A DNA stretch of 64,000 bases from Hymenobacter radiodurans. GTDB lineage: Bacteria; Bacteroidota; Bacteroidia; Cytophagales; Hymenobacteraceae. The position numbers and the translations under genes are program-made. Below, one piece after another: positions 1 to 64,000 of this stretch. Every line of letters begins with the position of its first letter. Positions within the stretch are counted from its first letter, which is position 1. The stretch is taken from contig NZ_CP037922.1 in NCBI RefSeq assembly GCF_004355185.1, positions 1,736,001 through 1,800,000 of the forward strand. Reading direction: 5' to 3'. The notes below the pieces were generated by a model. That model saw nothing but the letters and a program-made list of their open reading frames with translations. It was not told the origin of the DNA and ran no database searches.

Positions 1-1037
1 GCCCGTGAGAGCCGCCGCCACGCAGCCTTCCACGGCCACCCCCGAAATGGACGAGCGCACAAAAAAGGATTGATCAAACAACAGCTTCACATCCAGCCCT
101 TTCGGCGAGGTAGCCACTACATTGGGTAGCTCTTCTTTGATCCCGTCGATAACATCGAGCGTGCTGGCCAGTCCGCTTTTAAGAATGGGAATAACTGCCG
201 TGCGCAGCCCATCTTGGCGCACAATATTGGTTTGGACAGCTGCGCCCTCGTGTACAAATGCTACGTCGCGGATATATATCGTGACGCCGTTTACCTCCTT
301 TACTGGCAGGTCGTTGAGGGTGGCAATCAACTCAGGGCTGCTGTTGAGGCGTACGTCATACTCCCGGTCGCCAATTTTAGCGGTACCGGCGGGCAGAATC
401 ACGTTTTGCGTCGTCAATGCATTGACCACATCGTTGCCAGAGAGACCTTTGCCCGCCAACGCATCCGGCTTCAGATCAACCATGATTTGCTTTGACCGAC
501 CACCGTTGGGCACCAGCAAAGACGCCCCTTTTACGACCGCCAAGCCCGGCCGCACAAAGGAGCGGCTGGCGTCGTATAGGTCGGCTTCGCCCAGGGTTTG
601 GGAGGAAAGACTAGCCTGGGCAATGGGCACGTTGGCCGCCGAGTAGCGGATAATCAGTGGGGGGCCAATGCCCTGGGGTAAGCCCGAATGAGCGTGGCCG
701 TAATAGCCGTGAGCTGGGCCACGCCCGCATCGGGGTCGGTGCCGGGCTGGAAGAACACTTTAATAATGCCGACACCCTTAATAGCGCGCGACTCTAGGTG
801 CTCGATGTTGTTGACGGTGGTGGTGTACACGCGCTGGTTGACGTTGAGCACGCGCTGGTTCATTTCCTCGGCGCTCATCCCCGAATAGCTCCACACCACG
901 CCCACCACCGGGATGTTGACCTCGGGAAAAATATCCACCGCCATGGTGAAGATGGTCAAAATGCCCCCCGCTAGAATTACCAGGGCCATGACAATAAAGG
1001 TGTACGGACGCGAAAGCGCCAAGCGAACCATCCACAT
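1..1037 (-). CDS. RND efflux transporter permease, partial, one frameshift
   Basis: This is the N-terminal part of a resistance-nodulation-division inner-membrane pump (AcrB/CusA-like), which exports drugs or metals using the proton gradient with a periplasmic adaptor and an outer-membrane channel. The start MWMVRLALSRPYTFIVMAL is the usual first transmembrane helix, followed by FPEVNIPVVGVVWSYSGM and a porter domain with GTDPDAGVAQL. The gene runs off the left edge. The frame breaks after about residue 120 at the G4 run 675-678; one added G restores a frame that continues with GPPLIIRYSAANVPIAQASL to the window edge. The substrate cannot be told from this fragment. The family call is firm; the frameshift is read directly. 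Confidence 0.85.
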
Positions 1038-1508
1038 AGGCTAAAATAGAGATAAGAATAAGCGCCGACTCAACAAATGCGAGTTGGTGGCGGGCATTAC
1101 TGTTGAGGTACGTATGCGTAGCGGTTTTGGCGAATAGAAATCGATTTTGGGACTAATTCAGAGTACCAACCACTTACAAAGCGGAAGGTTAGGCTAAAGC
1201 CTGATAGGCAAGTGTTCCTCGCGTCCGCTTTTATGTAATAAAGCGCCAATTCACATCTGGGAAGCAGCCCTGTGTAGACCCTATTAGTTGGCGCTCACCC
1301 ATGCTTTCTGATCCGCGGCTATGCTTAGGCTGGCATAAATTCATACCCAGCATCGGTGAGTGAAGCCTCAAGTCAGACTGTAAGAGGCGCTAACTGTAAA
1401 TAGTTAAATATTAGTTAGTTATAATATAATAAAAATAATATCTATGAAAGTTGATCTATTGTTCTTATCTATCGGGAAAATTATAAAATATTGAAATTAA
1501 TTATAACT
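1038..1508. other. Intergenic region, no gene seen
   Basis: This stretch separates the divergent RND permease and OpgC-type genes. I see no credible ORF, tRNA or strong hairpin. From about 1380 the base composition drops sharply to AT-rich and stays so through the next gene, marking the left edge of a compositional island. Promoters for both flanking genes must lie here, but I could not fix a convincing Bacteroidota -33/-7 pair. Confidence 0.5.
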
Positions 1509-2690
1509 ATGAAAAGAATTCATGCCCTCGATTTCTTCAGAGGTATAATGCTGATTTTGATCACAGTAGATCATTTTCTATCTGAGAAAGACATCGTCAG
1601 ACACTTTACATATGAGTTCATTGGCTGGGTGACTGCTGCTGAGGGCTTCGTATTCTTATCGGGGCTGACAGCAGGCATTATATATACTCATAAGCTGAAT
1701 AAAAAAGGTGAGCGTTATACAAATGAAGCAGCAAAAAAGAGAGCCTGGTTAATTTACAGGAATCATATAGCTATTTTGCTCTTTGCTTTAATAGCTGTAC
1801 TATTTGGTTACGGATTGAATGAATATTGGGTAAATCATTACAGCTTGTTTGCCGAAAATCCATTCTTATCAATATTCTTAGGTGCTACATTGTTATATCA
1901 GCCTATATATTTAGATATATTACCAATGTACGCAGTCTTCATTTTATTTGTGCCAATAGTAATTAAATACTTCGAAAAAGGAATTGTTTGGCAATTATTT
2001 GCTTGTTCAATTGGATTATATATGTTCCCAATTTTTATGGGATCCAACATATTAAATGACATAACGCAGATCAGGGATATAAATACTGGCTTCTTCAATC
2101 TACTTTCTTGGCAATTCCTGTTCTTTCTAGGCTTATTTTCAGGATTTAGCTACTACTATGGCAAGACAAACCAGTGGCTGAACAATAAATATCTATTACT
2201 TTCGTCATTGATTTTGTTCTCTGGGCTCTTCTTAATAAAGAACCTGCATGTTAATTTGAATGGGCTTGATCTTTTATTTTCTAAAAATATATTAGGCCCA
2301 GTAAGACTTATAAACTGTTTGTCAATTGTTTTTATTATAGCGTTTGTATCTACTAAAAAGCTGCATTGGTTTTCATCTAAACCTATGTGTTATTTGGGTC
2401 GATACTCATTAGAGGTGTATTCATTCCATGTGTTGCTGATAATCTTATTAAAACCTTTGAAGGAAGAATTTAGCGATTTCTATTCAATTCAAATAACACA
2501 CTATTTCTTTGCGTATCCATTAGCCTTATTAATGATTTTATTATTAATAGTGCCTGCTTTATTTCTGGCTCCGACGCTATTAAGGAAAAAAACATATGTA
2601 CTTCGTAAAACGGAAGCTATACCTCCATATGAAGATGCGGAGTTGGCAAACGATAGCCTTTCATTAGAAGAGAACAAACAGCTAGTCTAA
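1509..2690 (+). CDS. OpgC-type membrane acyltransferase-like protein
   Basis: The 393-residue protein is almost entirely hydrophobic, with about ten predicted transmembrane helices. It opens with RIHALDFFRGIMLILITVDH and then AEGFVFLSGLTAGI, the signature of the OpgC/acyltransferase-3-like family. OpgC in Proteobacteria adds succinyl groups to osmoregulated periplasmic glucans; the substrate here is unknown. An in-frame TTG lies 18 bases upstream, but I chose the ATG at 1509 because the family starts close to the ALDFFRG motif. The gene is far richer in A and T than its neighbours, with codons such as tta, ata and aat, which suggests recent transfer. The C-terminal 35 residues are polar and probably cytoplasmic. 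Confidence 0.8.
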   Translation: MKRIHALDFFRGIMLILITVDHFLSEKDIVRHFTYEFIGWVTAAEGFVFLSGLTAGIIYTHKLNKKGERYTNEAAKKRAWLIYRNHIAILLFALIAVLFGYGLNEYWVNHYSLFAENPFLSIFLGATLLYQPIYLDILPMYAVFILFVPIVIKYFEKGIVWQLFACSIGLYMFPIFMGSNILNDITQIRDINTGFFNLLSWQFLFFLGLFSGFSYYYGKTNQWLNNKYLLLSSLILFSGLFLIKNLHVNLNGLDLLFSKNILGPVRLINCLSIVFIIAFVSTKKLHWFSSKPMCYLGRYSLEVYSFHVLLIILLKPLKEEFSDFYSIQITHYFFAYPLALLMILLLIVPALFLAPTLLRKKTYVLRKTEAIPPYEDAELANDSLSLEENKQLV

Positions 2691-2762: not shown

Positions 2763-4456
2763 CTAAGCCGAGGTTTCGCCGGCAGTGCTGGCAATGTGGC
2801 GGGTGCTGCCTGGAACCATCACGCGGGGCGGTTGAATTGGCTCGGCATGGAGGGCTAGGAGCCGGGCCACCACGGGCATTTCAGGGCCAATATGGAGCTC
2901 TCGGGCGCGAACTTTTACAGCGGCTTCTTCCCGACTTACGCCCCGGTCGTGGAGCTGTTCGTACTCTTCCCACGATTCTACCATAAAGTACTCCACCATG
3001 CGGATCGGGTCAGCCAGATCGACGTAGAGCCCGACGCGGATGGCGCCTTCGCGGCGGCGGATGCGGCTTAGCTCCTCCATGAGTGCCGCAAAGGCTGAGC
3101 GGTTGGCGGGGCAATGCGGTAGGTAGTAGTGATGATGATAGGCCCGGCGTCCGGCGCTGGCTCTTCCTCGGCTAGCACGGGCGTAGGCCGCGGGCGGGCG
3201 GGCGTAAAGTCGAGGCTTTCGGGGGCGTTAATAAGCGAGTAGCGGAATACCAATAGCGTACTCAGTCCCAACCAGATAGCCGCACCCGACAACGCCACCG
3301 GCAAGCTCCAATGAGTAGCCACCATTCCCCAAACTACGCTACCCAGTGCCATACCGCCCTGAATAGTAAGCAAATACAAGCTGATGGTGCGGGCCTGCAC
3401 CCAGCGCGGTACCACCGTTTGTACGCCCACACTGAAGGAGTTGAGCACCAGCATCCAGGCCAAGCCCACCAGCACCAGCAAGCCGTAGAGCAGCCAGTGG
3501 TTGTCAGCAAAAGCCAGCCCCAGCAGGCCCATGGAAAAGGCAATAGTAGAGAGCGTTACGCGATGGTCGATGGTGAGGCCGCGGTTGAGGCGAGGGAGCA
3601 CCACCGCCCCAATAACGGCTCCCAGACCCATACACGAAAGCAGGGTAGAGTAAAAGGAAGTGGGCAATTGTAACCGCTGAGAAACCACGGCCGGCATCAA
3701 CGCCAGCAGGGCGCTGGCCCCGAATGTAAAGCTGACGCCTCGCACCAGAATCCGCTGCACTGGCGGCGCAAATCGGGCATACCGAATGCCGCCCCGGATA
3801 GCGGCCACCACCCGCTCGGTGGCCAGGGTAGAGGTAGCCTGAGGCTCGCGCTTCCAGCGCCACACCATGTAAATAGTAGCCAGAAATGACAGCCCGTTGA
3901 TCAAAAAAGCACCCCCGGCCGAGTAGTAGCCAATAACTATGCCTCCCAAGGCTGGCCCAAAAGCCCGCGCCAGATTGAAGCTCACGCTGTTCAGGGCAAT
4001 GGCCTGAGGCAGTTCGGCGCGGGGGACCAGCTCGGGTGTTACGGTTTGCCACACCGGGTTATTAAGCGCGCCGCCCAGGCCCAGCATAAACGTGAGCAGG
4101 AGCAGCAGCCAGGGGGTGGTGAGGCCCATGAAGGTTAGCAAAGCCAGCAGCAGCCCTAATGAAGCCATCCAGGTTTGGGTGAAAAGCAGCATCCGGCGCC
4201 TATCTACCAAGTCAGCCAGCGCGCCGGCGGGTAAGCTGAGCAGAAAAACCGGTAGGGCCGAGGCCGTCTGGAGTAAGGCCACCAGCACGGGCGAAGGCGT
4301 AAGCTCAGTCATCAGGCCCACGGCGCCCACGTTCTGCATCCACGTGCCGATGTTGGACACAAACGACGCAATCCAGAGCATCCGGAAAAACGGAATTTTG
4401 AGTGGGGCGAAGGGAGAAGTGGAGGTAGGCTGGGTAAGCGTAGTGGAAGCAGGCAT
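2763..4456 (-). CDS. MFS transporter (MFS_3 / DUF894 type), one frameshift
   Basis: A twelve-helix major facilitator superfamily exporter of the enterobactin-exporter-like group. The N-terminal part shows FFRMLWIASFVSNIGTWMQ, and loop 2-3 contains GALADLVDRRRML. The first frame stops at 3068 in a meaningless tail. Adding one base at the G4 run 3108-3111 joins it to a 105-residue segment with the cytoplasmic C-terminal domain typical of this subfamily (SRIRRREGAIRVGLYVDLAD, then VESWEEYEQLHDR). The corrected product is about 564 residues. An upstream TTG at 4465 is possible, but the ATG at 4456 is preferred. The substrate is unknown; the gene is transcribed divergently from the phosphodiesterase gene. 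Confidence 0.85.
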
Positions 4457-4544: not shown

Positions 4545-4589
4545 AAAAAAGCCCCCGCCCGGTGGCGGACCACTAAGCGGGGGCTTTTT
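4545..4589. terminator. GCCCCCGC hairpin with flanking A and T runs
   Basis: A6 is followed by GCCCCCGC (4551-4558), an inner hairpin, GCGGGGGC (4577-4584) and T5. This is a classic bidirectional intrinsic terminator shape, but it lies between two divergent genes and ends about 20 bases before the ATG of the phosphodiesterase, so it cannot terminate either gene at its 3' end. Confidence 0.7.
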
Positions 4590-15040: not shown

Positions 15041-15064
15041 GCCCTCCGGTTACAATTGAGAGCC

Positions 15065-15100
15065 AAAAAAGCCCCCAGAGGTAACTCTGGGGGCTTTTTT
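15065..15100. terminator. Bidirectional intrinsic terminator
   Basis: A6, GCCCCCAGAG, a short loop, CTCTGGGGGC and T6. A perfect stem between the convergent LruC gene and the minus-strand gene starting at 17276; it can serve both. Confidence 0.9.
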
Positions 15101-15112
15101 GTGGGCTAAACT

Positions 15113-17276
15113 TTACAATCGAATACCAATGCCCGGGCCAAGGAGAAAGAACAGCTTGCCGCCGTTAAGCAGATAGCCGCCACCCAGATAGAGCGGGAAA
15201 GTTAGCTTAGCATCGCTGCGCGTCGGATACACGGAGCCCAAAATTACGATGCCCAGGTTGCGGGCGCTGTTGGCGTCGGGGTTCAGGTTGAAGGCATTCA
15301 GAGCCACGAAGCCCGCCCCAACTTTGTACGGACGCAACTTATTGATTTTGTTTGGGTTGTAGAAGCTGAACTGCGCCAGCGTAGCCAGGCTAATACCGTT
15401 GAACGTGCCCACGCCCTGCACGTCGCTGTTGACTTGCTTGGTCAGCAAACCGGCCGGGAAGCTGACGTCGATATCAAACTTCACGCGACGCTGAAGCACT
15501 AGATCGAGCTTCTGCTGGAAGCCGGGCTCTGAGTACTTATCCGCAGCGTGCTTCACCGTAATCTGGATGCGGGCCCAGTCGTCGAGGTCGTAGGTTTTGC
15601 GGGTGCTGAGGTGCGCATTCAGACTAAGATTGCCTACCTGACACTGTTTGTCCTGGTAAAAAGCCCCCGGATGGAGTTTTCACCCGGACAGATGACGATG
15701 TTGTCGAGGGTGCGCATCTCAATTAGCTCGCCCTTACTGTTCAAGGTCCGAATCTCGAAGCTCAGGTATTGCTTGCCGTACAGTTGAGCATCGGTGTCGA
15801 TGGCATCGGCGTTGAAGCTGAATACTACGTCGCGGATAGACTTATCGTAGAGGACGGGGCCATTGAGGCGGGTGATGGGGCGGGGCGCTTCGCCGAAGGT
15901 CACGCTCACAAAATCGAGCGGGTGGGGCCGCTGAAACTCACGTACATTGAGCACATGGCCCGTAGGCTGGCCCGCGTTAAAAATGGTCAGCCGCTTCTTG
16001 TCGATGTTCAACGGCACCTGTACGCGGTATACCACCGCCTGCTCGGAGCGCACCGACGAGTCGGAGGGTACCACCAGCACATCCTCAAAGTGGAAGCGCG
16101 CTTTCTGCAACGATTCGCCTTCCAGACGCACGTCCACAGTTTCGCCAGGATTCACCGTTTGGTTGTTCGTCCAGTCTCCGCCGCGGTGCCGCACCTGCAC
16201 GCCCATAATGCTGGTTTTGGGCGACACGTTGAAGTTGGTGAGGTACTTAGGCTGGTCGTTTTCCTTGATATAGAGGTAGCTGTCGGTTTGACGGTGGGTG
16301 TTGTACACGCGCAGCCAGCATAGCACCCGGTCGTTGGAAAGGTAGCTGCGGGTCACCAACTCGGCAATCAGCGGGCCGCCCTGTTCCTCCTGGTCCTCAA
16401 TGCGATAAGTGCGTTTTAGATCGAAGCTGCGGCCATTATCGAGAATAATTTCCACGCCCTGCCGGCGCGACGCCTCATTGAGAGTAATCTCTTTTTTGTC
16501 GACGCTCAGAAACCGCAGACGGCTGGACTTTACTGTGAACTCCTGGCGTAGTGGGGCCAGACTGTAGCTTAGGCGGCGGTTATTTTCGATGAGAAACGGC
16601 CGCTCCGTTTGGGGGCGCACCATCAGCGTGCGGTTGCCGGGCACGTTGGGCAGCACGTGCAGGCGCAGCGTACCGTTCTGCTGACTGAGGCGGTAGTCAA
16701 TTTCCTGGCCACGCGTCCAGTCGGTGCTCACGCGCACGTTTTTGGGATTGTTGCTGGTCAGGTCAAACACCTTTTCCTCACCTACATACAGCTCCGTGTC
16801 GTTGGGCCGAAAGGCCAGCGTGGTGCGCGTGACGGGCAACAAATTCACCGTTTGGGTCTGCAAATTGCCCCCCGCCTGATCTGGGTCTTGTGTAAAGGTG
16901 AGGCGCAGGAAGCGGGTAGCCGTCAGGTCGCGGAAGCGTATTTTGGCCCGATAAAATGCGTTGTCAACAGCCGTGAGCGAGTCTAGGAGTTGAAAATCGG
17001 CGGAGCGCTGGAGGCGTAGGGGCCGCTGGGGGCAAATTGGTTGGGGTAAACCAGCAGCTCCGCCGTCTCGTCGTCCTGGCGGTAATAGAAGTACAGGTGC
17101 GGCTCATTCTCGACCGTTACTACCTGGCGACTCAGGTGGTAGCGAGCCGTATCGACGTGCAGTACTACTTCTCGCAGCAGCGGAGTCTGAGCAAAAGCTG
17201 CGGGGCTAATTGCCAGCAAAACCAACAGTAAAAGTGAGGTGCCGACAGCGCGGCTGAAGTCTGGAAGAAGGCGCAC
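15113..17276 (-). CDS. Large exported protein of unknown function, two frameshifts
   Basis: Three adjacent open frames read as one protein of about 721 residues once a base is added in the G5 run 17028-17032 (joining NQFAP to QRPLRLQRSADFQ) and in the C5 run 15664-15668 (joining NSIRG to AFYQDKQCQVGNLSL). It begins with a clear signal peptide (LLLLVLLAISPAAFAQ). The middle is rich in short beta strands resembling Ig-like repeats. The last 120 residues (PYKVGAGFVALNAFN, LTFPLYLGGGYLL, FFLLGPGIGIRL) look like amphipathic outer-membrane strands. I do not recognise the family. A surface or outer-membrane structural role is a guess. Confidence 0.7.
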
Positions 17277-20248: not shown

Positions 20249-20284
20249 AAAAAAGCCCCCGGAATACATCCGGGGGGCTTTTTT
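20249..20284. terminator. Bidirectional terminator between GH15 and otsAB genes
   Basis: A6, GCCCCC, GGA...TCC, GGGGGGC and T6. It separates two convergent genes. The arms carry five C (20256-20260) against six G (20272-20277), so one base must bulge. Confidence 0.85.
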
Positions 20285-20302: not shown

Positions 20303-22479
20303 TTACGCTTCTACCAAAGCCCGCAATACGCGTCGCACATCGTGGTGGGTATCAAGGTGAAAGCGCGCTAGGGAGCGGTGAGTGCTGCCAACTTTCACGG
20401 TGTAGGCGTGCGACGGCATCGCGCCGAAGGTATCTTCATCGGTACGGTCATCGCCGATGGCGATGATAAAGTCGGCAGGATAGAAGCTGAGCCAGCGGGC
20501 GGCACCAGCGCCTTTATTTACGCCGGCGCTCTTTACTTCCACCACCTTATTGCCCTCCATCACTTGCAGGTCGCTGTTGGAAGCCAAAAAGTGCAGATGG
20601 CTGGTCAGCTCGCGCGCCCTTACCTCGCCAAGCTCTATATCGGCGCGGCGGTAATGCCATACCAACGAATATTCTTTTTCTTCCACAAAGGAGCCGGCCG
20701 TGCGGCTTACATGCAAGTCGAGAATAGGCCTGATTTCGTGCATCCAGTCGTTGGTAAGCGGCCGCAGCATGGTCCACTCTTCGCCCAAGGCCCGCAGCCA
20801 CACGCCGTGTTCTACAATAAAATCAAGGGGCAAATGGCCAAGCCACTTCTCCAAGGTCGCCCGGTCGCGCCCACTCACAATTATTACGCGGTTACGCTTA
20901 TCGGCGCTCAAGTCGGCTAGCAGCGTGAGCAACTCCTGGTCGGGGCCGGCAAGCTGCGGATTGGAGTTAAATCCGGCTAGCGTGCCATCATAATCCAGGA
21001 ATAAAAGCCGCTGGGGGCATTTTTGTATTCGCTGGTCATGCGTTGCAGCTCATCAGTGTTCAGAGTGGTAGTGGCCAAGGTTTCTTGTTTTAACTTGCTG
21101 TAGGTGAGGCGGTCCATGAATAAATTTACCCAGTGGTGAATATTGTATTTCTTTACCAAAGCCTGCATGGCGCCCATGCGCTGCCGCTGTTCGTCCTCGG
21201 GCATTATTAGCGCCTCGTGCATGGCCTCAGCCAGCTGGTTGGTATCCGTGGGGTTGATGATAATGGCATCCGATAGCTCGCGGGCGGCCCCGGCGCGCTC
21301 ACTCAGAATCAGAACCCCAGGGGTGTCAATCTTGCTGGCAATGAATTCCTTAGCCACCAAATTCATGCCGTCCCGCATCGGGGTAACCAGCGCCACTTCC
21401 GCCATCCGATACAAAGCCGCCAATTCCTCAATCGGGAAGGAGCGGTAGAAGTACTGAATCGGGTTCCAGGAAATGGTGCGGTAGGTGCTATTGATGCGGC
21501 CAACCAGCTCGTCAATTTCCTCTTTTAGCTCCTTGTACTGATCCACCTGGTCGCGAGACGGAACCACCACCATGAGCAGGGTAGCCCGCTCGCGCCACTC
21601 GGGGTAGGCTTGCAGCAACAGCTCATAGGCCCGCAGGCGCTGGGCTATGCCTTTCGTATAGTCGAGGCGGTCGATAGACAGAATTATCCGCTCGTTGCGC
21701 AAGGCGTCGCGGTACGTTTGCTCGTGCGCGCGGGCCTGTTCCGACTGTGCTACTTCCGCGTATTTGGCTTGGTCAATTCCCATCGGGAAGGCGTCGACCA
21801 GCACACTGCGCGTGTTCACTTCCACCAGGCCATTCTGGCTCTGATACCCCAGCAGCTGCGACACAGAGCTCAAAAAGTGACGCATGTAGCCGTAGGTATG
21901 GAAGCCAATCAGATCGGCACCCAGCATACCCTCCAGCAATTGGCGCCGCCAGGGCAGCACCCGAATCAGCTCGTAGGAGGGGAAGGGAATATGCAAAAAG
22001 AAGCCAATGCTGCTTTTTGGTCGCGCGGCGCGCAGCATCTGCGGCAGGAGCAGCAGCTGATAATCGTGTACCCAGATGGTATCGTCGGGGCCGGCCAGCT
22101 CCAGCACGGCCCGGCAGAATTTCTCATTTACCGCCACGTAGGCTTCCCAGTGCGACTGGTCGTAGATGGCGTACTGCGCGAAATAATGGAAGGTTGGCCA
22201 GAGCGTTTCGTTGCTGAAGCCTTCGTAAAAATCTCGGATTTCACTTTCCGTCAGGAACACGGGCCGCATACTGTCGGCCCGGAGCTTTTCGCGCACTTCC
22301 TGTTCTTCCTCAGCATCGACAGAGATGCCGGGCCAGCCCACCCAGACATTATTAGCAGCCCGATAAATAGAGCCCAAACCGGTGGCTAAGCCCCCTTCGC
22401 TGGGGGAAAAAGAAAGGCCCTCTTCACTGCGTTGTACTTTGGTTGGTAGGCGATTAGAAACGATAATCGTACGGGACAT
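20303..22479 (-). CDS. otsAB: Fused trehalose-6-phosphate synthase/phosphatase, one frameshift
   Basis: The N-terminal 480 residues are a GT20 trehalose-6-phosphate synthase: IIVSNRLP at the start, GWPGI, WVHDYQLLLLPQML, FFLHIPFPSYELIRVLPWR and the donor-binding RDGMNLVAKEF. The C-terminal part is a HAD phosphatase with motif I DYDGT, SGRD and motif III GDDRTDEDTF. The frame is broken at the C5 run 21013-21017 (minus strand GCCCCCAG); one added C joins YKNAP to QRLLFLDYDGT and gives about 725 residues. UDP-glucose and glucose-6-phosphate are converted to trehalose in two steps, for osmotic or desiccation protection. Without the correction only the synthase half would be made. Confidence 0.9.
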
Positions 22480-25789: not shown

Positions 25790-27113
25790 GTGAAAAACAG
25801 CAAAGTATTCTTCTGGTCCATCGTCATCGCCCTGGGGGCTTTTTGTTTGGCTTTGACACGGCCGTGATATCCGGAGCGGAAAAAGCGATTCAGCAGCTTT
25901 GGCAGCTCACCGCTTTCGAGCACGGGTTCACCATATCCATCGCTCTTATAGGTACGGTGCTCGGCGCCTTGCTGGGGGGCATTCCTTCCGATAGACTGGG
26001 TCGCCGCAAGACCCTGATCTGGATTGCGGTCCTCTACTTCGTCTCGGCTTTGGGCGCGGCCATGGCTCCGAGCTGGGTGCCCTTTCTGATCTTCCGCTTC
26101 CTCGGTGGGCTAGGGGTAGGCGCCTCCTCCGTCACGGCGCCGCTCTACATTTCAGAGATTTCGCCAGCCGCCTCCCGGGGCCGCATGGTGGCGCTGTTTC
26201 AGTTCAACATCGTCTTCGGAATCCTGATTGCCTATCTTTCCAACTATCTGCTGGCCGATAGCGGCGACGCAGCCTGGCGCTGGATGCTCGGCGTGCAAGT
26301 CTTCCCAGCCGCCGCATTTCTGCTCCTTCTGTTCCGGGTGCCCGAAAGCCCGCGTTGGCTGATCACCAAGAAAGGTCTGGTAGAAGAAGGCCGCGCCATT
26401 CTGCGCATCATCAACCCCACCTCTTTTGACCGCGACGTCACGGCAATCCTGACGTCGCAGGCCCAGGAAGGCGCCGGGGGGAATCGCTCTTTACCCGGAA
26501 GCATATTGGGCCGGTAATGCTGGCGGTGCTGTTCGCCGTCTTCAATCAGGTTTCCGGCATCAACGCTATCCTGTATTATGCCCCCCGCATCTTTGAAATG
26601 ACGGGGTTGGGTACCAGTTCGTCCCTGCTATCGTCGGCAGGCTTGGGGCTGATCAACTTCGCCTTTACCCTGCTGGCCATGAACTTCATCGACCGGTTTG
26701 GCCGGCGCAAGCTCATGCTGATTGGCTCTTTTGGCCTGATTGCCACGCTGGGCTTGGTAGCCCGTGCTTTCTACACCGAGCAGTTTACGGGCTTCACCGT
26801 GCCCATCCTGCTGTTCGTGTACATCGCCTTTTTCGCCTTCTCGCAAGGGGCTGTTATCTGGGTATTTATCTCTGAAATCTTCCCCAACAGTGTGCGCGCC
26901 AAAGGGCAGGCGCTGGGTAGCTCTACGCACTGGATCATGGCGACTATCATCGCCTTCACCTTCCCCTACTTCGCCGAGCACCTAGGCGGAGGCCACACCT
27001 TCCTCTTTTTCTGCCTGATGATGGTGCTGCAATTGGTCTTCGTGTGGCGCTTCATGCCCGAAACCAAAGGCACGAGCCTGGAGCAAGTCGAAAAGATTCT
27101 GGTGGTCCACTAA
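25790..27113 (+). CDS. Sugar-porter MFS transporter, two frameshifts
   Basis: A twelve-helix sugar:proton symporter of the XylE/GLUT type, probably importing fructose released in the periplasm. Three pieces join into about 441 residues. GTG 25790 starts MKNSKVFFWSIVIALG, and a base added at the G5 run 25834-25838 leads to GFLFGFDTAVISG. A base added at the G6 run 26476-26481 links EGAGG to ESLFTRKHIGPVM. Sugar-porter signatures include DRLGRRKTL, RFLGGLGVGASS, PESPRWL, NQVSGINAILYYAPRIFE, DRFGRRKLM and PETKG near the end. It lies between the hybrid sensor and SusC, as the inner-membrane importer does in known fructan loci. Confidence 0.88.
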
Positions 27114-27151
27114 GAGGCCAGTCAAAGAGACAAAAAGCCCCCACAAGAACC

Positions 27152-27249: not shown

Positions 27250-27352
27250 TGATTTACAAGCGTCTTTCCGAAAACGATTACAGCTCCCTGGCGTCCTTTT
27301 TTGCCACCCAGAGCTGACCAACCTTCAACTCTCTCCACTTTATACAACACCC

Positions 27353-44453: not shown

Positions 44454-47400
44454 ATGAAAAAATATCTATTCATCTTCTGTCTGCTGCTGGGTGCGGCGAC
44501 GGGGGCTTTTGCCCAGGCCCAACGAACCATTACGGGCGTGGTGCGGTCGGCAACTGAGGCTTTGCCCGGCGTAACCGTGCTCGTGAAAGGCACCACCAAC
44601 GGCGCCTCTACCGATCCTGAAGGCCGCTTCAGCCTCACGGTGCCTACGGGCCAGCCGGTGACCCTAAATATCAGCTCGATTGGCTACGTATCGCAGGAAA
44701 TCCCCGTTGGCGACCGTGAACAGATCAACGTGACGCTCAAGGAAGATGCGCAACAGTTGAATGACGTGGTAGTAATTGGTTACCAAGAGGTTAACCGCCG
44801 CGACGTAACTGGATCCGTATCATCAGTTGGCGCCCAGCAGATTAAGGACGTGCCCGTTAACTCGGCCGCTGAGGCACTCACGGGCCGCTTGGCTGGTGTG
44901 CAGCTGACTAGCTCGGAGGGTACGCCTGGTAACCAGGAAGTACAGGTGCGGGTACGCGGTGGCGGCTCGGTAACGCAGGATAACTCGCCGCTCTACGTGG
45001 TCGATGGTATTCAAATTGAAAACGCATTGGGCGTAATTGCCCCCCAAGACATTGCTTCGGTCGACGTACTGAAAGATGCATCTGCTACGGCTATTTATGG
45101 TGCGCGTGGCGCCAATGGTGTTGTGATTATCACTACCAAAAAAGGCCTGGAAGGCAAAACCGTAATTAGCTATAATGGCTTCGCGGGGGTACGTAAAATC
45201 ACCAACACGCTAGGGGTGCTTGAGCCCGACGATTATTTAAACTACCAGTATGAGCGGTCGCGGTATGCCGGCGTTGCTGGCCTGAACAGTTTTAGAACGC
45301 TGTTTGGCTCTAGAAACTTTGCTAGCGATACCATTACACGGGCCCGTAATTCACCTTTTGTTGATTGGCAGGATGATGTGTTCGGCAAGAATGCGTTCCA
45401 GCAAACCCACAACGTATCGATAGCTGGCGGGGTGAAAGGCACCACCTATTCCCTGAGCCTAACCCGCAACACCGAAGACGGTATTCAGCGCGGCTCCGAC
45501 TACGAGCGCAGCCTGATCAACTTCCGCTTCGATACCAAAGCGACCGACAAGCTCACCGTCGGCCTGAACGTGCGCTTCAACGACCAGGAAGCCAACGGCG
45601 CCGGCACCTCTACCTCCGGTTCTTCCGTTACCTCACGTCTGCGTAATACGGTGCAGTACCAGCCGCTGAACATCCCAAGAGCTGATGGCACGGTAGTGGA
45701 CGTAACGGCCTTTGATCCAGAATTTTTCGAGACGTCTACGCTGGTAAACCCCATCCTGACCATCGACAATGAGTACCGCCTCGATAAGCGCCGCACCTTC
45801 AACGTGGGGGGCAATATTGCGCTGGAGCTAGCTAAAGGCTTGGTGTTCCGCTCCACGGCTGGTTTCGACATTACCAACTTTGACCTGAGCACTTTCAATG
45901 GTCGCTATTCGCCTACCATTCGGCAGGCGGCGGGGGCTATTTGAACCTGCCTTTCGCCACTATCACGACTACCACTCAGACCACGATTAACAACTCGAAT
46001 GTGCTGGATTATTCCTTCAAGAAGGACCAGCACTCCGTTGGCGTTCTTGTAGGACAGGAAATCTATCAACAGCGTAACAACCAGCAGTTCATCCAAACCA
46101 ATTTCCTGCCGCTGGAAATCACCGCTGAGCGGGCATTGGCCAACATTAACCAAGGTGTACTACCCACTGGCCAGACTTCCCAGCCCGTGCTGCCCCAAAC
46201 CAGCATTCCGCAGGACTACCGCTTGCTGTCCGGCTTCGGTCGCCTGACGTACTCTTACAATGACAAGTACCTCTTCACGGGTACGTTCCGCGCCGACGGC
46301 TCATCGAAATTCAAAGACAACAACCGCTTCGGCTTTTTCCCTGGTGCCTCCGTTGCGTGGCGGATTTCGCAGGAAGAGTTTTTTAAAGGCGTTCCAGCCG
46401 TATCCGATTTGAAGCTGCGCTTAAGCTACGGCCAAGCCGGTAACAACCGTATCGCCGACTTCCTGACCGACCAGCTGTACCGGGCCGGTAGCGCGCCGTA
46501 TGCACTCGGTGGCAATATCGTGCAGGGTTCAGCGCCCGTCAGCCTACCTAATCCTGACTTGAAGTGGGAAAAAACCACTTCGCGCAACTTAGGTCTGGAT
46601 TTGTCATTGCTCGACAACCGCATTCAGTTCACGGCTGATGCGTACTACAACACCACCAGCGATCTGCTCATCGCCCGTCCGATTCCAGCTTTCACAGGCT
46701 ACACCTCGCAACTTCAGAACATCGGCTCAACCTCTAACCGTGGTCTGGAATTGCAGGTTATTGGTAACATCGTAAACAGTGAGAACTTCACCTGGACGGC
46801 TACGGCTAACACCTCCTTTAACCGGGGTCGCATTGAGGACTTAGGTCCCAATACTAACGAGATTCTGGGTATTGCTTCCGGCTGGGCTGGTACTGCGCTC
46901 AACCAAGATTTCGTAGCGCGGAAAGGTCAGCCTGTAGGGCAGATGTACGGCTACGTAACCGATGGCTTCCTCACCGCCGATGACTTCATTGGTTACGTGC
47001 CGGCTACCACCCCTACGGGTACGGGTACCTGGACGGTTAATCCTGATCGGCCTCTAGTGAATCCCTTTGCCGTAATCGGTGGTGGTGAGTTTCGTCCAGG
47101 CTTGATAAAACTGCGTGACCTCAACGGCGATAATATCATCAATAACCAGGATCAGACGGTAATTGGTAATGCTAACCCGAAAGCGGTAGGCGGTCTGAAC
47201 CAGCAGTTTACCTACAAGAATTTCGATGCTAGCATCTTCCTGAACTTCGTGCTTGGCAATGATGTCTACAACGCGAACAAAATCGAGTTCACGACCAATA
47301 CGGCTAACACCACGTTCAGCAACGTGCTCGACATCATGGGTAATCGCTACCGCACCATTGAGGAAGATGGCAGCCCCATTACGACCATCGAGCGCCTGCG

Positions 47401-49987: not shown

Positions 49988-52041
49988 ATGAAACAACTAC
50001 TCAAATCACTTGTGCTGCTACTGCTGTTGGGGGCTTTTTGCCCCCCGCTCAGGCTCAGCAGATTGTGGTAGCTCAGAATGGCTCGGGGCAGTTTCGCACT
50101 ATTCAGGAAGCTATCAATAGCCTGCCGAATGAAGCGGCTAAACCACGGGTAATTCTGATCAAAAACGGCACCTACCGCGAGAAGCTTTTCATCGACGGCA
50201 AGGGCAATATCACGCTCAAAGGGCAGAGTGAAAAAGGAACTGTCATCACCATTTCACAGGCCCGCGACGCTTGGCGCTGCGACCCTGTGAAAGGCGCCGA
50301 TGATTGGGGCGTGGCCACGCTGAACATGCGTAACTCCCCTGACATCACACTCGAAAATCTAACGTTCATCAACAGCTACGGCTTCGATGCCAAGGGTGAG
50401 ACTACGATAGGCTGCCCCGCCGATCCAACGGGCAAAAAAGTGGTGCAAAAAGACGGTCACCAGATGGCCATGCGCACCTTCGGAGGCGCTACACGAATCA
50501 CGGTGCGGCAATGTACTTTTCGCGCCCTGGGTGGCGACACGGTTAGCCCTTGGGACACGGAAGGCGGCATGTTCTATTTTCAGAACTGCACCATGGAAGG
50601 TGGCGTTGATTTCTACTGCCCGCGGGGCTGGGCGTACATCGAAAATAGCCGCTTTATCTGCCACAATATGTCGGCCGCAATCTGGCACGATGGCTCAGGT
50701 AATCGCGACTCCAAAACGGTGCTGAAGAACTGCACTTTTGAGGGCGACGACAACTTCAAATTGGGGCGCTACCACCGCGAGTCGCAGTTCTATCTGATTG
50801 ACTGCAAGTTCCCCAAGAACATGGCCGATGCCGACATTTACCATTCACCCTCCGGGCCAGGTACGCCCAACTGGGGGCGGCGAGTGTACTATGCCAACTG
50901 CCACCGCGAAGGCGGCGACTACGCTTGGCACCGCGACAACCTGAATACGGCCGAAAATGCCCCCCAGGTGCGTGCAATTACGGCCAACTGGACTTTTGGT
51001 GGCCGCTGGAACCCCGACCCCAAATCGCCTATCATCAAAGCTCCTACCGCGCCGGTTAGCGTTGATACCATCGCTGAGAAAATGCTAGTGTATCAGCGGA
51101 GCGTAGGCGGTTGGCCCAAAGCCGTAGGCGACGTGAAAGTGGACTACACCAAGCCGTTGAGCGCCGCAAAAAAAGCAGCTACGCTTGACGACGCCAACCG
51201 CAACGACGCTACCATCGACAACGATGCCACTACTCGGGAGATTAAGTATCTGATGGAGGCGTTCCAAAAAACCAACAACCAGGCTTACCGAAGTGCAGCT
51301 CAGAAGGGCATTCAGTACCTGCTGAAAATGCAGTATCCCAACGGGGGATTTCCGCAGTACTACCCCGATAATAGTGGTTACCGGCACTACATTACTTACA
51401 ACGACAACGCCATGATGCGCGTGCTGGTCTTGCTTCGCGATGTAGCGCAGCAGAAAGGCAACTTTGCTATCGTGAATTCGGCCTTGATACCGCAGGCCCA
51501 GGCCGCCGTAGCACGGGGCATCGATTGCATCCTCAAAACCCAGTATGTGCAGAACGGGAAGCTCACGGCTTGGTGTGCCCAGCACGATGAGAAAACCTTC
51601 CAGCCAGTGAAAGCACGAGCCTTTGAGCTGGCTTCGCTGAGCGGCATGGAAACCGTAGAAATAGTGGAGTTCCTGATGGCCGTAGATAAGCCTTCGCCCG
51701 AGATTAAAAACTCTATTGATGCGGCTGTGGCTTGGCTGGATTTGGTGAAGATTCCGGGTTACGCGGTGAAGCTTATTGATGCCCCGAAAGAGCCTACTGG
51801 CAAAGACCGCGTGATTGTGCCGGAGGCCGGTTCAGTTATATGGGCTCGCTTTTATGATTTGGAGACCAACAAGCCCATTTATGTGGGCCGCGACGGGGTG
51901 AAAAAATCCACCCTAGCCGAAATTGAGAATGAGCGGCGTGCAGGCTATGCCTATGCGGGTACGTGGCCGGCCAAGCTGCTAGCGAAAGAATACCCCAAGT
52001 GGCAACAGAAGTGGGCCAATACCACCGGTGCGAAACTATAA
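49988..52041 (+). CDS. CE8 pectinesterase-PL10 pectate lyase fusion, one frameshift
   Basis: A bifunctional exported enzyme of about 684 residues. Residues 25-340 form a CE8 pectin methylesterase beta-helix (FRTIQEAINSLPN, GTYREKLFI, GDTVSPWDTEGGMFYFQNC, EGGVDFYCPRGWAYIE). From about 360 a PL10 pectate lyase follows (EKMLVYQRSVGGWPKAVGD, ATTREIKYLMEAFQKTNNQ, YPNGGFPQYYPD, YNDNAMMRVLVLLRDVA). The frame breaks inside the signal peptide at the G5 run 50029-50033; a sixth G makes MKQLLKSLVLLLLLGGF then LPPAQAQQIVVAQNG. An ATG at 49982 would add two residues. It de-esterifies homogalacturonan and then cleaves it, giving unsaturated ends for GH105 and KdgF. Confidence 0.9.
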
Positions 52042-52051: not shown

Positions 52052-53580
52052 ATGAAAAATTTATCTCGCGCTGTAGCCTTGACAGACACTGAGGCACCCG
52101 TGCTCCGACCCACTGCTGCTCTGCTGGAATTGCCCGAAAAAGTGCTGCAATTTGGCACCGGCGTCTTGCTACGGGGCCTGCCTGATTATCTTATTGACAA
52201 AGCTAACCGCCAAGGCGTTTTTAATGGCCGTATTGTGGTCGTAAAATCAACTGATGGTGGCGACCTGACCGCTTTCGAGCGTCAGGATAACCTCTACACC
52301 GTCGGTATTCGGGGCGTGGAAGATGGCCAGACCATAGAGGAAAATGTGCTGTGTGCGTCCATCAGCCGGGTGCTGTCGGCGAAAAGCCAGTGGGCGGAAG
52401 TGCTTGACTTTGCGGCTAGCCCCGACCTACAGGTTGTCATTTCCAACACGACAGAAGTAGGGATTCAGCTTACGGCGGATGATATCCAGCAGGAGCCGCC
52501 GCACTCGTTTCCGGGCAAGCTGTTAGCCGTACTGTATGCTCGTTTTCAGGCCTTTGATGGTGATGTATCCAAAGGTCTAATCATTGTACCCACGGAATTG
52601 ATTCCGGACAATGGCAGTAAGCTAGAGGCGATTCTTTTGGAATTGGCTCATCGGAATGGCCTCGAACCGGAGTTTATTGAGTGGCTGGAAACGGCCAATA
52701 CCTGCTGTAATTCCCTGGTCGATCGAATTGTGCCTGGAAAGCCCGACGCCGCTACCCACCAGGCGCTGACTACGCAGCTTGGCTACGAAGATGAGCTCTT
52801 GACCATGACAGAAGCATACCTGCTGTGGGCCATTGAGGGCGACGAGCGGGTGAAGGAAATTCTGTCTTTCCACCAAGCGGATAAGGGCATATTTATTCGG
52901 CCCGATATCAATCTGTTTCGGGAGTTGAAGCTGCGCTTGCTCAATGGTACGCACACGCTAAGCTGCGGCCTGGCTTATCTGAGTGGCTGCGAGACGGTGC
53001 GGGGGCTATGGAGAATGATTCTGTCGCCACTTTTGTGCACAATCTGATGTTAGGAGATTTGCTGCCGGGCATCCCGTATGCCGTGGACGAGAAAGTAGGT
53101 CAGCGCTTTGGTTTGCAAGTGCTGGACCGCTTTCGGAACCCCTATATCGAGCACCGGTGGCTGGCTATTACCATGCAGTACACCATGAAAATGCAGATGC
53201 GCAACGTGCCCACTTTGCTGCATTATTACAAGCGGTTCAACACGGCCCCGCACTATGTGGCGCTTGGGTTTGCGGCCTATCTGCTATTTATGCGCGGCAC
53301 TCGTCAGGACGGGAAAACATGGTACGGCAGGGCTAACGGCACCGAGTATCCCATCAACGATGATCAGGCCGGCTACTTTGCTGAGTTGTGGAGCCGCAAC
53401 TTATCTGCGTCCGATCTGACGAACATTGTTCTACAAAATCAAACGCTTTGGGGCCACGACCTCAGCCAGTTACCAGGCTTTGCCAAGCGCGTAAGCGACA
53501 ATCTTCAGCAAATGCTGGAAACCGGCGTTGCGGCCACGGTAGCAAAGCATTTAAATAAAAAAGCCACCTTAGTCAAATGA
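52052..53580 (+). CDS. uxaB: Tagaturonate reductase (altronate oxidoreductase), one frameshift
   Basis: An NAD-dependent mannitol-dehydrogenase-type enzyme of about 509 residues that reduces tagaturonate to altronate. It shows EKVLQFGTGVLLRGLPDYLI, VVISNTTEVGIQL, IIVPTELIPDNG, ANTCCNSLVDRIVPG and the catalytic region LRLLNGTHTLSCGLAYLSG. The frame breaks at the G5 run 53001-53005; a sixth G joins CETVRGAMENDSV to ATFVHNLMLG, as conserved in UxaB. The C-terminal domain (YIEHRWLAITMQYTMKM) is intact. Its stop overlaps the start of uxaA (ATGA), showing translational coupling. Uncorrected, the enzyme would lack its C-terminal third. Confidence 0.92.
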
Positions 53581-57055: not shown

Positions 57056-58062
57056 ATGAAACAGGTTGTCACCTTTGGCGAGATTATGTTGCGGCTTTCG
57101 CCGCCTCTGAACTACCGGTTTACGCAAGCGGCTAGCTTCGAGGCGACGTACGGTGGGGGCGAGGCTAACGTAGGCGCAGCCCTAGCTGGACTAGGCATAC
57201 CCGCCGCGCACGTCACCTGCTTTCCGGCCAATGAGCTTGGCCAGGCCGCCACGCAAAGCTTCCAGCGCCTGGGCATGGATATGAGCCACACGGTGTACAG
57301 CGGCAAGCGGCTGGGGCTTTACTTCCTGGAAGTAGGCGCCTCCATGCGGGCCAGCAAAGTGGTGTACGACCGCGCCGATTCATCCTTCGCTAACCTTGAT
57401 CCGGCCGCTTTTGATTGGGATGAGATTCTGAAAAATGCCCAATGGCTGCACTGGACGGGTATTACGCCCGCTATTTCAGCTGCGGCGGCGCAGGCCATCG
57501 GCGAAGGTATTCAGGCAGCGCGCCGCATGGGCCTTACCGTATCGGCTGATGTGAACTACCGCCGCAACCTGTGGCAATACGGGCAGCGCGCTCAGGATGT
57601 AATGCCGGACCTCGTAGCTGGTTGCGACGTGGTGGTATGCTCCGAGAATGACGCCGACGACTTATTCGGAATTCGCCCCGTGGCGGGTGTAGAAAACAAG
57701 TTTGCTTCCATCAGCGAGCAGCTGATGACTCGGTTTCCGCAAATCAAACAAGTAATCAGCACGCGTCGCAAAACCCAGAGTGCCTCTCACGAGCGCATTA
57801 AGGGTCAGCTGTTTGACGGCGCTTATTCTGAAACGCCCTACTACGACATCACGCCCGTGGTCGACCGCATTGGTGGCGGCGACGCGTTTCTGGGGGCTTT
57901 ATTTATGGCACTTTAACCTACGCGACGCCGCAGGAGGCGCTGCACTTCGCCGTGGTGGCTTCGGCCCTCAAACACACGATTCACGGCGACGTGAACTTGG
58001 TGACGGTAGCCGAAGTGGAGCACGTGCTGCAAGGAAATACGACTGGCCGCTTAGTGCGGTAG
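57056..58062 (+). CDS. kdgK: 2-keto-3-deoxygluconate kinase, one frameshift
   Basis: A PfkB-family sugar kinase of about 335 residues that phosphorylates KDG to 2-keto-3-deoxy-6-phosphogluconate. FGEIMLRLSPP at the start, YGGGEANVGAALAGLG, VSADVNYRRNLW and VVVCSENDADDLFGI are typical of KdgK, with catalytic Asp276 in RIGGGDAF. The frame breaks at the G5 run 57892-57896 directly after this motif; a sixth G continues FLGGFIYGTLTYATPQEALH to TTGRLVR and a stop at 58062. Uncorrected, the last 50 residues including part of the ATP site are lost. It is the common point of both uronate branches. Confidence 0.92.
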
Positions 58063-58201: not shown

Positions 58202-58857
58202 ATGCCTCGTTTTTCCGCTGACTATATTCTCGAAACCGTTCTGCGCCATCCCATTGTGCCGGTTTTTTACCACGCTGAGGCTGCCTACGCGAAGCGTATT
58301 ATGCAGGCTTGCTACGACGGTGGACTGCGGGTATTCGAGTTTACCAACCGCGGCGAAAAAGCCCCCAGGTTTTTGCTGAGCTGGTGACTTTTGTGCGCGA
58401 CACCTGCCCCGATATGTTGCTGGGAATCGGCACTATTTATCAAGCCGAAGAAGCGGAACGCTTCATTGCCGCCGGCGCTGATTTTGTGGTGCAGCCCGTC
58501 ACGACGGAATCCGTGGCGGCGGTGTGCCAGCAGCACGATGTGCCCTGGCTGCCCGGTGCCATGACCTTGAATGAAATCTATAACGCTACCCAGCTAGGAG
58601 CTAAGCTCGTGAAAGTATTTCCGGGCAACGTGGTAGGGCCGGGCTATATCAAGAGCTTGCGCGGGCCGATGCCGACGGTGAAGATAATGGTGACTGGCGG
58701 CGTGGAGCCCACAACGGAAAGCTTGCAGGAGTGGTTTGGCGCCGGCGTAAATGTTGTTGGAATGGGTTCGCAGCTCTTTAAAAATGCCGATTATACCGAA
58801 GCGTTAAGCCGTCAAATTGCCGACTTGCTAAAGTTTGTAGATACCTTGAAAAAGTAG
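58202..58857 (+). CDS. eda: KDPG/KHG aldolase, one frameshift
   Basis: A class I aldolase of about 218 residues that splits 2-keto-3-deoxy-6-phosphogluconate into pyruvate and glyceraldehyde-3-phosphate. VLRHPIVPVFYHAEAAYAKR, GGLRVFEFTNRG, the phosphate-binding and Schiff-base region GAKLVKVFPGNVVGPGYIKS (catalytic Lys in LVKVFP) and MVTGGVEPT are conserved. The frame breaks at the C5 run 58362-58366; one added C joins TNRGEKAP to QVFAELVTFVRDTCPD. It ends the route begun by UxaABC and Kdu enzymes, and it is preceded by a short region with a CGCGAAGC/GCTTCGCG hairpin. Confidence 0.93.
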
Positions 58858-62058: not shown

Positions 62059-62099
62059 GAATTGACATTCTCTCCCTTCAACTTCTAGTATTTCTTCCT

Positions 62100-63452: not shown

Positions 63453-63538
63453 CCGCTTTACTGTTCTAACCTAAACCTCTACTCTTTCTTTCGAGAGCCG
63501 CGTTGACTCCAACCTCACAACCGGCTCTTTTCTGCACT

Positions 63539-64000
63539 ATGCCCAAAATAATTGCCCCCAGGTCGAGTTCAGCCACTTGCTGAGCCAGGTTAAAAGCGTC
63601 ACTCCCGAAATCCTGACCCCGGATGGTCAGTTTCTGAACCTGATGGAAGGCCGCTGGCAGGAGCCCGGCAAGCCCCGCAAATTCACGTCGCCAGTGGATG
63701 GCACCGACCTTGGCTCCCTGCCCATGCTCGACCACGACACCGGGCTGCGGGCAGTCATCTTCGCCAAGCAGGAAGCCGCCGACTGGGCCGCCACCGACCT
63801 CGATGAGCGTAAAAGCCGGGTGCAGGACTGTCTCAATCAGCTCCGCGACCAGGTAGATCTGGTGGGCAAGCTGCTCATCTGGGAGATTGGGAAAACCTAT
63901 AAGCTAGGTTTCACCGACATCGACCGGGCCATTGAGGGCGTGCAGTGGTACGTTGATAATATTGAGGATATGCTGGGCCAGCGCAAGCCGCTGGGGTTGG
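63539..64000 (+). CDS. Aldehyde dehydrogenase (GapN-like), partial, one frameshift
   Basis: The N-terminal 154 residues of an NAD(P)-dependent aldehyde dehydrogenase; the gene continues beyond the window. The frame breaks at the C5 run 63555-63559: with a sixth C the protein starts MPKIIAPQVEFSHLLSQV and continues FLNLMEGRWQEPGKP, FTSPVDGTDLGSLPMLDHD and LLIWEIGKTYKLGFTDIDRA. The ALDH N-terminal coenzyme domain and the EIGK segment are recognisable. Sequence style and context suggest non-phosphorylating glyceraldehyde-3-phosphate dehydrogenase, which would oxidise the triose phosphate made by KDPG aldolase to 3-phosphoglycerate and make NADPH, but the catalytic Cys lies outside the window. 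Confidence 0.7.

What the first reader, a model, noticed from the sequence alone, without database searches (positions are those of the whole stretch)
1..64000. Sixteen one-base contractions of G/C homopolymers break fourteen genes in the same way
Seen directly: every frameshift is in a G or C run and every one is repaired by adding one base. Tracts: 675-678, 3108-3111, 15664-15668, 17028-17032, 21013-21017, 25834-25838, 26476-26481, 28525-28529, 31421-31424, 38789-38793, 45932-45936, 50029-50033, 53001-53005, 57892-57896, 58362-58366, 63555-63559. Twelve are five-base runs next to C or G (GGGGGC / GCCCCC) where the conserved protein needs six. About thirty other in-frame runs of six or more (up to C8) are intact. 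The breaks hit consecutive steps of the same pathway, which random decay would not do while leaving each remainder perfectly conserved. Systematic under-calling of G/C homopolymers is the simplest explanation; population-level slippage (phase variation) or transcript slippage is the exciting one.
Basis: partly seen in the sequence, partly recalled or inferred. Interest (0 to 1): 0.85.

Follow-up and report, generated by a model that had tools for sequence, protein, structure and literature searches.

The report
Genome-wide repeated DNA word in Hymenobacter
The sixteen one-base breaks look like reading errors in the assembly, but most of them sit in a short DNA word that is repeated thousands of times across this bacterium's chromosome and resembles the self-recognition words some bacteria use when taking up DNA.

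Summary
In detail: all 16 tracts exist and each is one base shorter than in a near relative. The breaks are best read as assembly under-calls. G/C runs of six read as five: 27 here against 1 in the draft genome of Hymenobacter sp. BT188. A/T runs show no bias, and coding sequence is not spared.

The cause of the clustering is the real find. Twelve of the 16 tracts lie in one word, about (C)TGGGGGGC followed by five A/T. It occurs 2,934 times in this genome and 2,446-3,359 times in three close relatives, but 6-37 times in the other 116 of 120 Hymenobacter. Third codon positions inside it are 95.5% identical between two species, against 74.3% in the flanks. It forms terminator-like inverted pairs, shows no replication polarity, is absent from a 20-kb integrase-bearing block, scarce in the second contig, and arose by substitution. 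Pontibacter carries different words, AAGTATAA and AGGTATAG, up to 10,385 copies. This matches DNA-uptake-sequence dialects, but pilT was found in 0 of 26 genomes, so the function is inferred.

The parts
1..64000 (.). 56 copies of the word G5-6 C [AT]4 on both strands (34 with six G, 22 with five); 2 copies of the reversed-word control
15067..15098 (.). Inverted pair of the word (15067-15076 minus, 15089-15098 plus), terminator-like stem-loop; both copies contracted relative to BT188
   Evidence: (15060-15110 folds at -34.5 kcal/mol, z -6.7)
4547..4588 (.). Inverted pair of the word (minus then plus)
20251..20282 (.). Inverted pair of the word (minus then plus)
15659..15668 (-). Word copy holding reader tract 15664-15668 (contracted)
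17028..17037 (+). Word copy holding reader tract 17028-17032 (contracted)
21013..21022 (+). Word copy at the end of the otsA-like ORF, next to the otsB-like ORF (PF00982, PF02358)
25834..25843 (+). Word copy in a sugar transporter gene (PF00083), contracted; equally short in H. qilianensis
28525..28534 (+). Word copy at the end of an ORF with SusC/TonB-receptor plug domains, contracted
38789..38797 (+). Weaker word copy (three A/T after C) near the end of a GH88 ORF, contracted; equally short in H. qilianensis
45932..45941 (+). Word copy splitting a SusC/TonB-dependent receptor gene (PF07715 before, PF00593 after)
50029..50046 (.). Two overlapping opposed word copies (50029-50038 plus, 50036-50046 minus) near the start of the pectinesterase/pectate lyase ORF
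53001..53009 (+).
57892..57901 (+).
58357..58366 (-).
63550..63559 (-). Word copy holding reader tract 63555-63559 (contracted)
675..678 (.). Reader tract outside the word; contracted relative to H. qilianensis (no BT188 alignment)
3108..3111 (.). Reader tract outside the word; contracted relative to BT188 and H. qilianensis
26476..26481 (.). Reader tract outside the word; contracted relative to BT188 and H. qilianensis
31421..31424 (.). Reader tract outside the word; contracted relative to BT188 and H. qilianensis

Best explanation
Two layers. (1) The one-base contractions are base-calling or consensus errors of this assembly at G/C runs; H. qilianensis CP060784 shows the same signature. (2) They cluster in one context because the clade of this genome, H. 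roseosalivarius, H. qilianensis and BT188 carries a highly iterated DNA word, about (C)TGGGGGGC(A/T)5, some 3,500-4,300 copies per genome when copies with five or six G are added. The word is held at the DNA level and arose in place by substitution. The mechanism I think most likely is uptake-sequence-type molecular drive: DNA carrying the word is preferentially taken up or recombined, so the word spreads through homologous (core) DNA, stays rare in newly acquired DNA, and diverges into lineage dialects (other words in Pontibacter). Shown: copy number, clade limit, conservation, inverted pairs, lack of polarity, absence or scarcity in one acquired block and the second contig, dialects. Inferred: the uptake or recombination step and any receptor. 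My estimates: artefact about 0.93; word real and constrained at the DNA level about 0.97; uptake-type drive about 0.45.
For: Artefact. Word: 2,934 copies here, 2,446 (H. qilianensis), 2,986 (H. roseosalivarius), 3,359 (BT188), versus 6-37 in 116 other Hymenobacter (names). In 321 genomes drawn from the order, only the two clade members drawn stand out; the next has 121. TGGGGGGCAA 161 seen, 1.4 expected in 560 kb of BT188 and this genome. Mismatch spectrum in 240 kb of BT188: 124 perfect versus 0.8 expected, 110 single-mismatch versus 19.4, 208 double versus 203. Constraint: third codon positions 95.5% (n=399) versus 74.3% (n=1,945); non-coding 92.8% versus 80.5%. Placement: 119 of 169 coding (0.61/kb), 50 of 169 non-coding (1.13/kb). 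Inverted minus/plus pairs with loops up to 25 nt: 70, other orientations 8. Polarity: 413 leading, 420 lagging, origin set at dnaA. Acquired DNA: 0 words in a 20-kb low-GC block with an integrase gene; 18 in 180 kb of the second contig. Gain by substitution: 12 sister sites, no gaps, one full word. Dialects.
Against: The type IV pilus retraction ATPase (TIGR01420) was found in 0 of 26 genomes, so the pilin receptor of Neisseria cannot be assumed. ComEC is in 12 of 12 genomes, with or without a known word, so it does not discriminate. I saw no report of competence in these genera. Other candidate words (CCTAGG in BT559, GGGCCC-type in G012) are palindromic, more HIP1-like than uptake-like. Small unaligned stretches other than the 20-kb block do hold words: in all 8 words in 30.6 kb without BT188 alignment. 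Four of the 16 tracts are equally short in H. qilianensis, which shared real contraction could also give. The sequencing platforms are not visible to me.
Confidence: 0.5

Rival explanations
1. The contractions are real phase variation or transcript-slippage sites: populations hold both lengths and full-length proteins are made from part of the cells or transcripts.
For: The tracts are short homopolymers in conserved genes, H. qilianensis also shows many five-G copies, and 4 of 16 tracts are short in both genomes.
Against: Roughly 700-850 excess five-G copies would be switched in one genome (arithmetic). The draft relative with the same word shows almost none of this: 1 of 28 six-to-five events is on the BT188 side. 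Coding is not spared.
Confidence: 0.04
2. True pseudogenes: a burst of slippage has inactivated these genes in this strain.
For: The assembled sequence literally has the breaks.
Against: Direction, base specificity and indifference to coding; both halves of several genes still match their families; of the 12 tracts in the word, 8 are longer in both relatives.
Confidence: 0.03
3. The word is a highly iterated mark tied to DNA methylation or another intracellular DNA transaction, like cyanobacterial HIP1, not to uptake.
For: HIP1 is also a frequent, lineage-dependent word (PMC4390886, abstract seen, which links it to orphan methyltransferases); two other Hymenobacter carry palindromic candidate words.
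Against: The word here is not palindromic, is absent from an integrase-bearing block and scarce in the second contig. No matching methyltransferase was looked for.
Confidence: 0.25
4. The word is a Chi-type recombination signal read by a helicase-nuclease and protecting self DNA.
For: G-rich core, non-palindromic, lineage-specific, rare in acquired DNA.
Against: No replication polarity: 413 leading to 420 lagging (the origin is taken to be at dnaA and the terminus opposite). Inverted minus/plus pairs are 70 against 8 in other orientations. Dialects of quite different composition in Pontibacter.
Confidence: 0.1
5. The word is a binding site of a nucleoid-associated or chromosome-organising protein.
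For: Even spread along the chromosome (10-24 copies in each full 20-kb sample but one, which holds much of the word-free block) and DNA-level conservation.
Against: Scarcity in the second contig and wholesale dialect change between species groups.
Confidence: 0.15

Closest known systems
DNA uptake sequences (DUS) of Neisseriaceae, with dialects
   Same: Very many copies, often within genes, inverted pairs associated with terminators, lineage dialects that follow phylogeny (PMC3630211, passages seen); here.
   Different: Phylum Bacteroidota; pilT in 0 of 26 genomes; a different word; uptake not tested.
Uptake signal sequences (USS) of Pasteurellaceae
   Same: Passages of PMC1939737 give for H. 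influenzae 65% in ORFs, and for these sequences in general an excess in non-coding DNA, about 10% inverted repeats and no orientation bias. Here 119 of 169 are coding, with non-coding excess, up to 140 of 833 in close minus/plus pairs and no polarity. An A/T stretch following the core is recalled for USS, not read.
   Different: Different core and phylum; uptake not shown.
HIP1 (GCGATCGC) of cyanobacteria
   Same: Highly iterated word, lineage-dependent abundance (PMC4390886, abstract seen).
   Different: HIP1 is palindromic and linked to methyltransferases; the word here is not palindromic and comes with inverted terminator-like pairs.
Chi sites
   Same: Short, over-represented, lineage-specific (recalled).
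   Different: No replication polarity here.
Homopolymer under-calling in assemblies
   Same: One-directional loss of a base in G/C runs, intact in a draft relative.
   Different: Unusual only because a repeated G6 word multiplies the number of broken genes.

Membership tests
DNA uptake sequence (DUS/USS) | Massively over-represented short non-palindromic word | tested here: met
DNA uptake sequence (DUS/USS) | Preferential uptake or transformation of DNA carrying the word | not testable with these tools
   needs an uptake competition assay
DNA uptake sequence (DUS/USS) | Type IV pilus machinery with a DNA-binding pilin | tested here: not met
   TIGR01420 (PilT) in 0 of 26 genomes, while 13 of 14 control genomes ring; pilins and other pilus parts not searched
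DNA uptake sequence (DUS/USS) | Inner-membrane DNA channel ComEC | tested here: met
   12 of 12, but also in genomes without a known word
[quoted passage not shown]
   413 leading, 420 lagging in 944 kb, origin taken at dnaA
DNA uptake sequence (DUS/USS) | Inverted pairs associated with terminators | tested here: met
   arrangement and one fold only, termination not tested
DNA uptake sequence (DUS/USS) | Depletion in acquired DNA | tested here: met
   one 20-kb block (0 words) and one second contig (18 in 180 kb); the remaining 10.6 kb of unaligned DNA hold 8 words
DNA uptake sequence (DUS/USS) | Lineage dialects | tested here: met
HIP1-like iterated palindrome | Word is a palindrome | tested here: not met
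   logo
HIP1-like iterated palindrome | Cognate orphan DNA methyltransferase | not tested
   no methylome data; methyltransferases not searched
Chi site | Strand bias relative to replication (recalled) | tested here: not met
   if the origin is at dnaA
Phase-variable homopolymer | Length heterogeneity within a population | not testable with these tools
   no reads held
Assembly homopolymer error | One-directional, base-specific, indifferent to coding, absent in another assembly of a relative | tested here: met
   platforms not visible

The most novel reading that the evidence does not exclude
Chromosomes of Hymenobacteraceae carry lineage-specific self-recognition words in dialects ((C)TGGGGGGC(A/T)5 in the clade of this genome, AAGTATAA and AGGTATAG in Pontibacter, perhaps others elsewhere), spread by biased uptake or recombination of DNA through a route without the PilT-type pilus motor. 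It would be an uptake-sequence system outside Neisseriaceae and Pasteurellaceae and a natural tracer of self versus acquired DNA in Bacteroidota.
Probability: 0.4. Interest if true: 0.9.

Novelty: new variant of a known kind. Interest (0 to 1): 0.75.

Why it matters
If the word is an uptake or recombination signal, Bacteroidota have a barrier to foreign DNA in transformation that does not rest on PilT-driven pili, and word density would mark core versus imported DNA in genomes of these clades. If it is not, several thousand conserved copies of a 12-14 base word that changes identity between sister groups still need a cause. Practically, homopolymer errors in assemblies of this clade hit the word hundreds of times, so gene content of such records (H. 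qilianensis CP060784 seems to be one) is understated.

Tried and rejected
Chi-type polarity: the first 16 samples hinted at strand bias by position. With 20 further samples, the window and 160 kb downstream, and the origin set at dnaA, it vanished.

Type IV pilus explanation: pilT in 0 of 26 genomes.

A context that decides which word copies are contracted: contracted and kept copies have similar flanks by eye; not modelled.

Words in other Hymenobacter: a blind survey of single 20-kb stretches from 17 further Hymenobacter genomes and 2 of other families gave codon-usage words, dispersed repeats and tandem arrays as far as I could judge (a 4.6-kb stretch of G013 was not scanned). Candidates with signal: G012 (GGGGCCCC 192 versus CCCCGGGG 38 in 200 kb), BT559 (CCTAGG 37, 16, 33, 1 sites per about 20 kb), Rufibacter immobilis (GTTTAGGGGC 9 and 6). 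One genome each. G006 (200 kb) gave no such word.

Literature: I saw no paper on such words in Hymenobacter, Pontibacter or Bacteroidetes/Bacteroidota. Searches had no hit. Searches (6 papers; 1 paper) listed none that its title or abstract start shows to be about this; those were not opened. One search had 1,052 hits of which 10 were listed, none with Pontibacter. PMC7965970 (passages) reports self-DNA preference in Riemerella columbina and k-mer counts whose 10-mers shown are A-rich; its authors leave possible uptake sequences open. PMC4390886: a find for Bacteroidetes and related terms had no occurrence.

Dropped rows: L017 (H. qilianensis) was left out of the tree because its frame had 18 stops; L067-L072 were not entered. 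In one search columns with a gap in the window's genome were left out of the codon-position counts. In one search I compared chosen pairs of loci (5, 5, 5, 5 and 4 pairs), not all. Searches were scripts of mine that stopped on an error and were rewritten (one search gave part of its output first).
Full report
WHAT WAS CLAIMED. Sixteen G/C runs in the window are each one base too short and break about fourteen genes.

THE OBSERVATION. The tracts are there. The window lies in a 4.73-Mb contig of what its relatives show to be a Hymenobacter genome. Its closest named relatives are Hymenobacter sp. BT188 (contigs named in the SPAdes manner), H. roseosalivarius DSM 11622 (draft) and H. qilianensis CP060784 (equal contig length identifies G010 with the last). 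The window plus 160 kb downstream aligns with BT188 over 194 kb at about 87% identity. At 15 of 15 alignable tracts the window lacks one base relative to BT188; the sixteenth shows the same against H. qilianensis. Four tracts are equally short in H. qilianensis.

ARTEFACT. Six-to-five contractions of G/C runs number 27 on the window's side and 1 on BT188's; A/T runs are balanced. Of the contracted runs 20 of 27 are in coding sequence, of the kept ones 80 of 100, so selection does not seem to see the change. Against H. qilianensis both sides carry such contractions: 6 here, 11 there. Over whole genomes the word with five instead of six G occurs 1,341 times here and 1,864 times in H. qilianensis, but 502 and 462 times in H. 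roseosalivarius and BT188, while the six-G form occurs 2,934, 2,446, 2,986 and 3,359 times. At the drafts' proportion (12-14%) this genome would have about 520-615 five-G copies, so some 700-850 are in excess; that many broken or shifted sites in one genome is not credible as biology. I infer assembly error; the platforms are not visible.

THE WORD. In 240 kb of BT188, 94% of 219 exact six-G runs are followed by C, and 174 of 219 then by at least four A/T. The logo is (C)(T/C)GGGGGGC(A/T)5 with a T-rich end. TGGGGGGCAA occurs 161 times where a second-order Markov model expects 1.4, in 560 kb of BT188 and this genome. In BT188 perfect matches to TGGGGGGC plus four A/T are 124 against 0.8 expected, single mismatches 110 against 19.4 (40 of those with an exact A/T tail are C for the first T), double mismatches 208 against 203. 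Of 120 Hymenobacter genomes held, 4 carry it in thousands and 116 carry 6-37, about the level of the reversed-word control. Of 321 genomes drawn from the order only the two clade members in the draw stand out; the next has 121. In the window there are 56 copies against 2 of the reversed control.

IT IS HELD AT THE DNA LEVEL. Between BT188 and the window's genome, third codon positions inside the word are 95.5% identical (n=399), in the flanks 74.3% (n=1,945); non-coding positions 92.8% against 80.5%. Within one difference the word is kept at 119 of 137 sites, against 702 of 990 for any seven G/C next to four A/T. It lies on both strands and in every codon phase, unevenly (home-made gene finder, 138 genes). 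In sister Hymenobacter the matching places have no gap in 12 of 12 cases and the full word in 1 of 12, so it arose by point substitution, not insertion.

ANATOMY. In 944 kb of this genome there are 833 copies, 422 forward and 411 reverse; relative to dnaA 413 are leading and 420 lagging. Seventy minus/plus pairs have loops of up to 25 bases, all other orientations together 8 at that range. The window's pair at 15067-15098 folds at -34.5 kcal/mol, z -6.7. Non-coding density is about twice the coding density in BT188. A 20,048-base, 45.6% G+C block without BT188 alignment has no copy; the other unaligned 10.6 kb have 8. The block carries an integrase, an Abi_alpha gene and an error-prone polymerase. 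The second contig has 18 copies in the 180 of 190 kb read, about a ninth of the chromosomal density.

DIALECTS. Loci of Pontibacter show other words: AAGTATAA in 15 and AGGTATAG in 12 of the 63 loci scored (threshold 0.5 per kb); the reversed words are at 0-3 copies in those loci. Over whole genomes ARGTATAR reaches 10,385 copies in P. mucosus against 364 of the control. In the family search, 41 of 50 genomes of that genus group have at least three times the control, while the 120 Hymenobacter have under twice (my count from the table). Between chosen species pairs of one dialect AAGTATAA is kept exactly at 81 of 104 places (identity 0.933, flank 0.801) and AGGTATAG at 68 of 105 (0.892, flank 0.777). 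Between dialects the identity falls below the flank (0.634 against 0.807, 28 places; 0.714 against 0.751, 35 places). On a tree of the query protein the AGGTATAG group is one clade with support 100; AAGTATAA needs 5 changes; all four label classes together need 7 against 26 in shuffles (quick method, one gene).

WHAT IT WORKS LIKE. The list of properties is that of DNA uptake sequences. PMC1939737 (passages) gives 65% of H. influenzae and 35% of N. gonorrhoeae copies inside reading frames, excess in non-coding DNA, about 10% inverted repeats, no orientation bias, and a model in which biased uptake alone spreads the word. PMC3630211 (passages) describes dialects and inverted terminator pairs in Neisseriaceae. 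The missing piece is the machine. No pilT-family ATPase was found in any of 26 genomes, with or without a known word. ComEC is in 12 of 12 but does not separate them. Natural competence in Bacteroidota has been reported for Riemerella, with self-DNA preference and no resolved uptake word (PMC7965970, passages). I therefore claim 'works like an uptake-sequence system' at about 0.4-0.45 and do not claim membership.

VERDICT. The breaks are most likely errors; the word that attracts them, and its dialects in the family, are the finding. I saw no paper on it in searches, which cover only the open-licence library held here and whose longer lists were seen in part.

Noticed in passing
window 27130-27260: A roughly 100-base palindromic dispersed repeat between two genes has many copies on both strands in this and several other Hymenobacter genomes (capped list), a REP-like family.
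   Followed up: no
L123:12781-20000 and L124:1-12828 (G000:C2 about 1852781-1872828): Integrase-bearing 20-kb low-GC block without BT188 alignment, with an Abi_alpha gene, an error-prone polymerase and a DNA/RNA endonuclease.
   Followed up: partly
L124:2836-5223 (minus strand): A 795-residue protein matches FtsZ/tubulin GTPase and FtsZ C-terminal models and then AAA/SMC-type ATPase models, an unusual domain pairing in a mobile block.
   Followed up: no
L018, L162, L163, L164 (Hymenobacter sp. BT559): CCTAGG occurs 37, 16, 33 and 1 times per about 20 kb, a possible palindromic dialect with one nearly free stretch.
   Followed up: partly
L139-L148 (G012): GGGGCCCC 192 copies against 38 of CCCCGGGG in 200 kb, AGGGCCCC 125 against 5 of its reverse.
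   Followed up: partly
L024, L167 (Rufibacter immobilis): GTTTAGGGGC occurs 9 and 6 times per about 20 kb; 0 in 8 and 1 in 1 of 9 other Rufibacter-like loci.
   Followed up: no
L170 (G023): GGGTA-type array, AGGGTAGGG 21 copies in 20 kb.
   Followed up: no
L165:4622-5697: An AIRS-domain gene also looks broken into two overlapping frames in this assembly; I took it for thiL by eye.
   Followed up: partly
L017, L085-L088 (H. qilianensis CP060784): The public complete genome shows the same contraction signature: 43% of word copies read with five G and 18 stops in the query gene's frame.
   Followed up: partly
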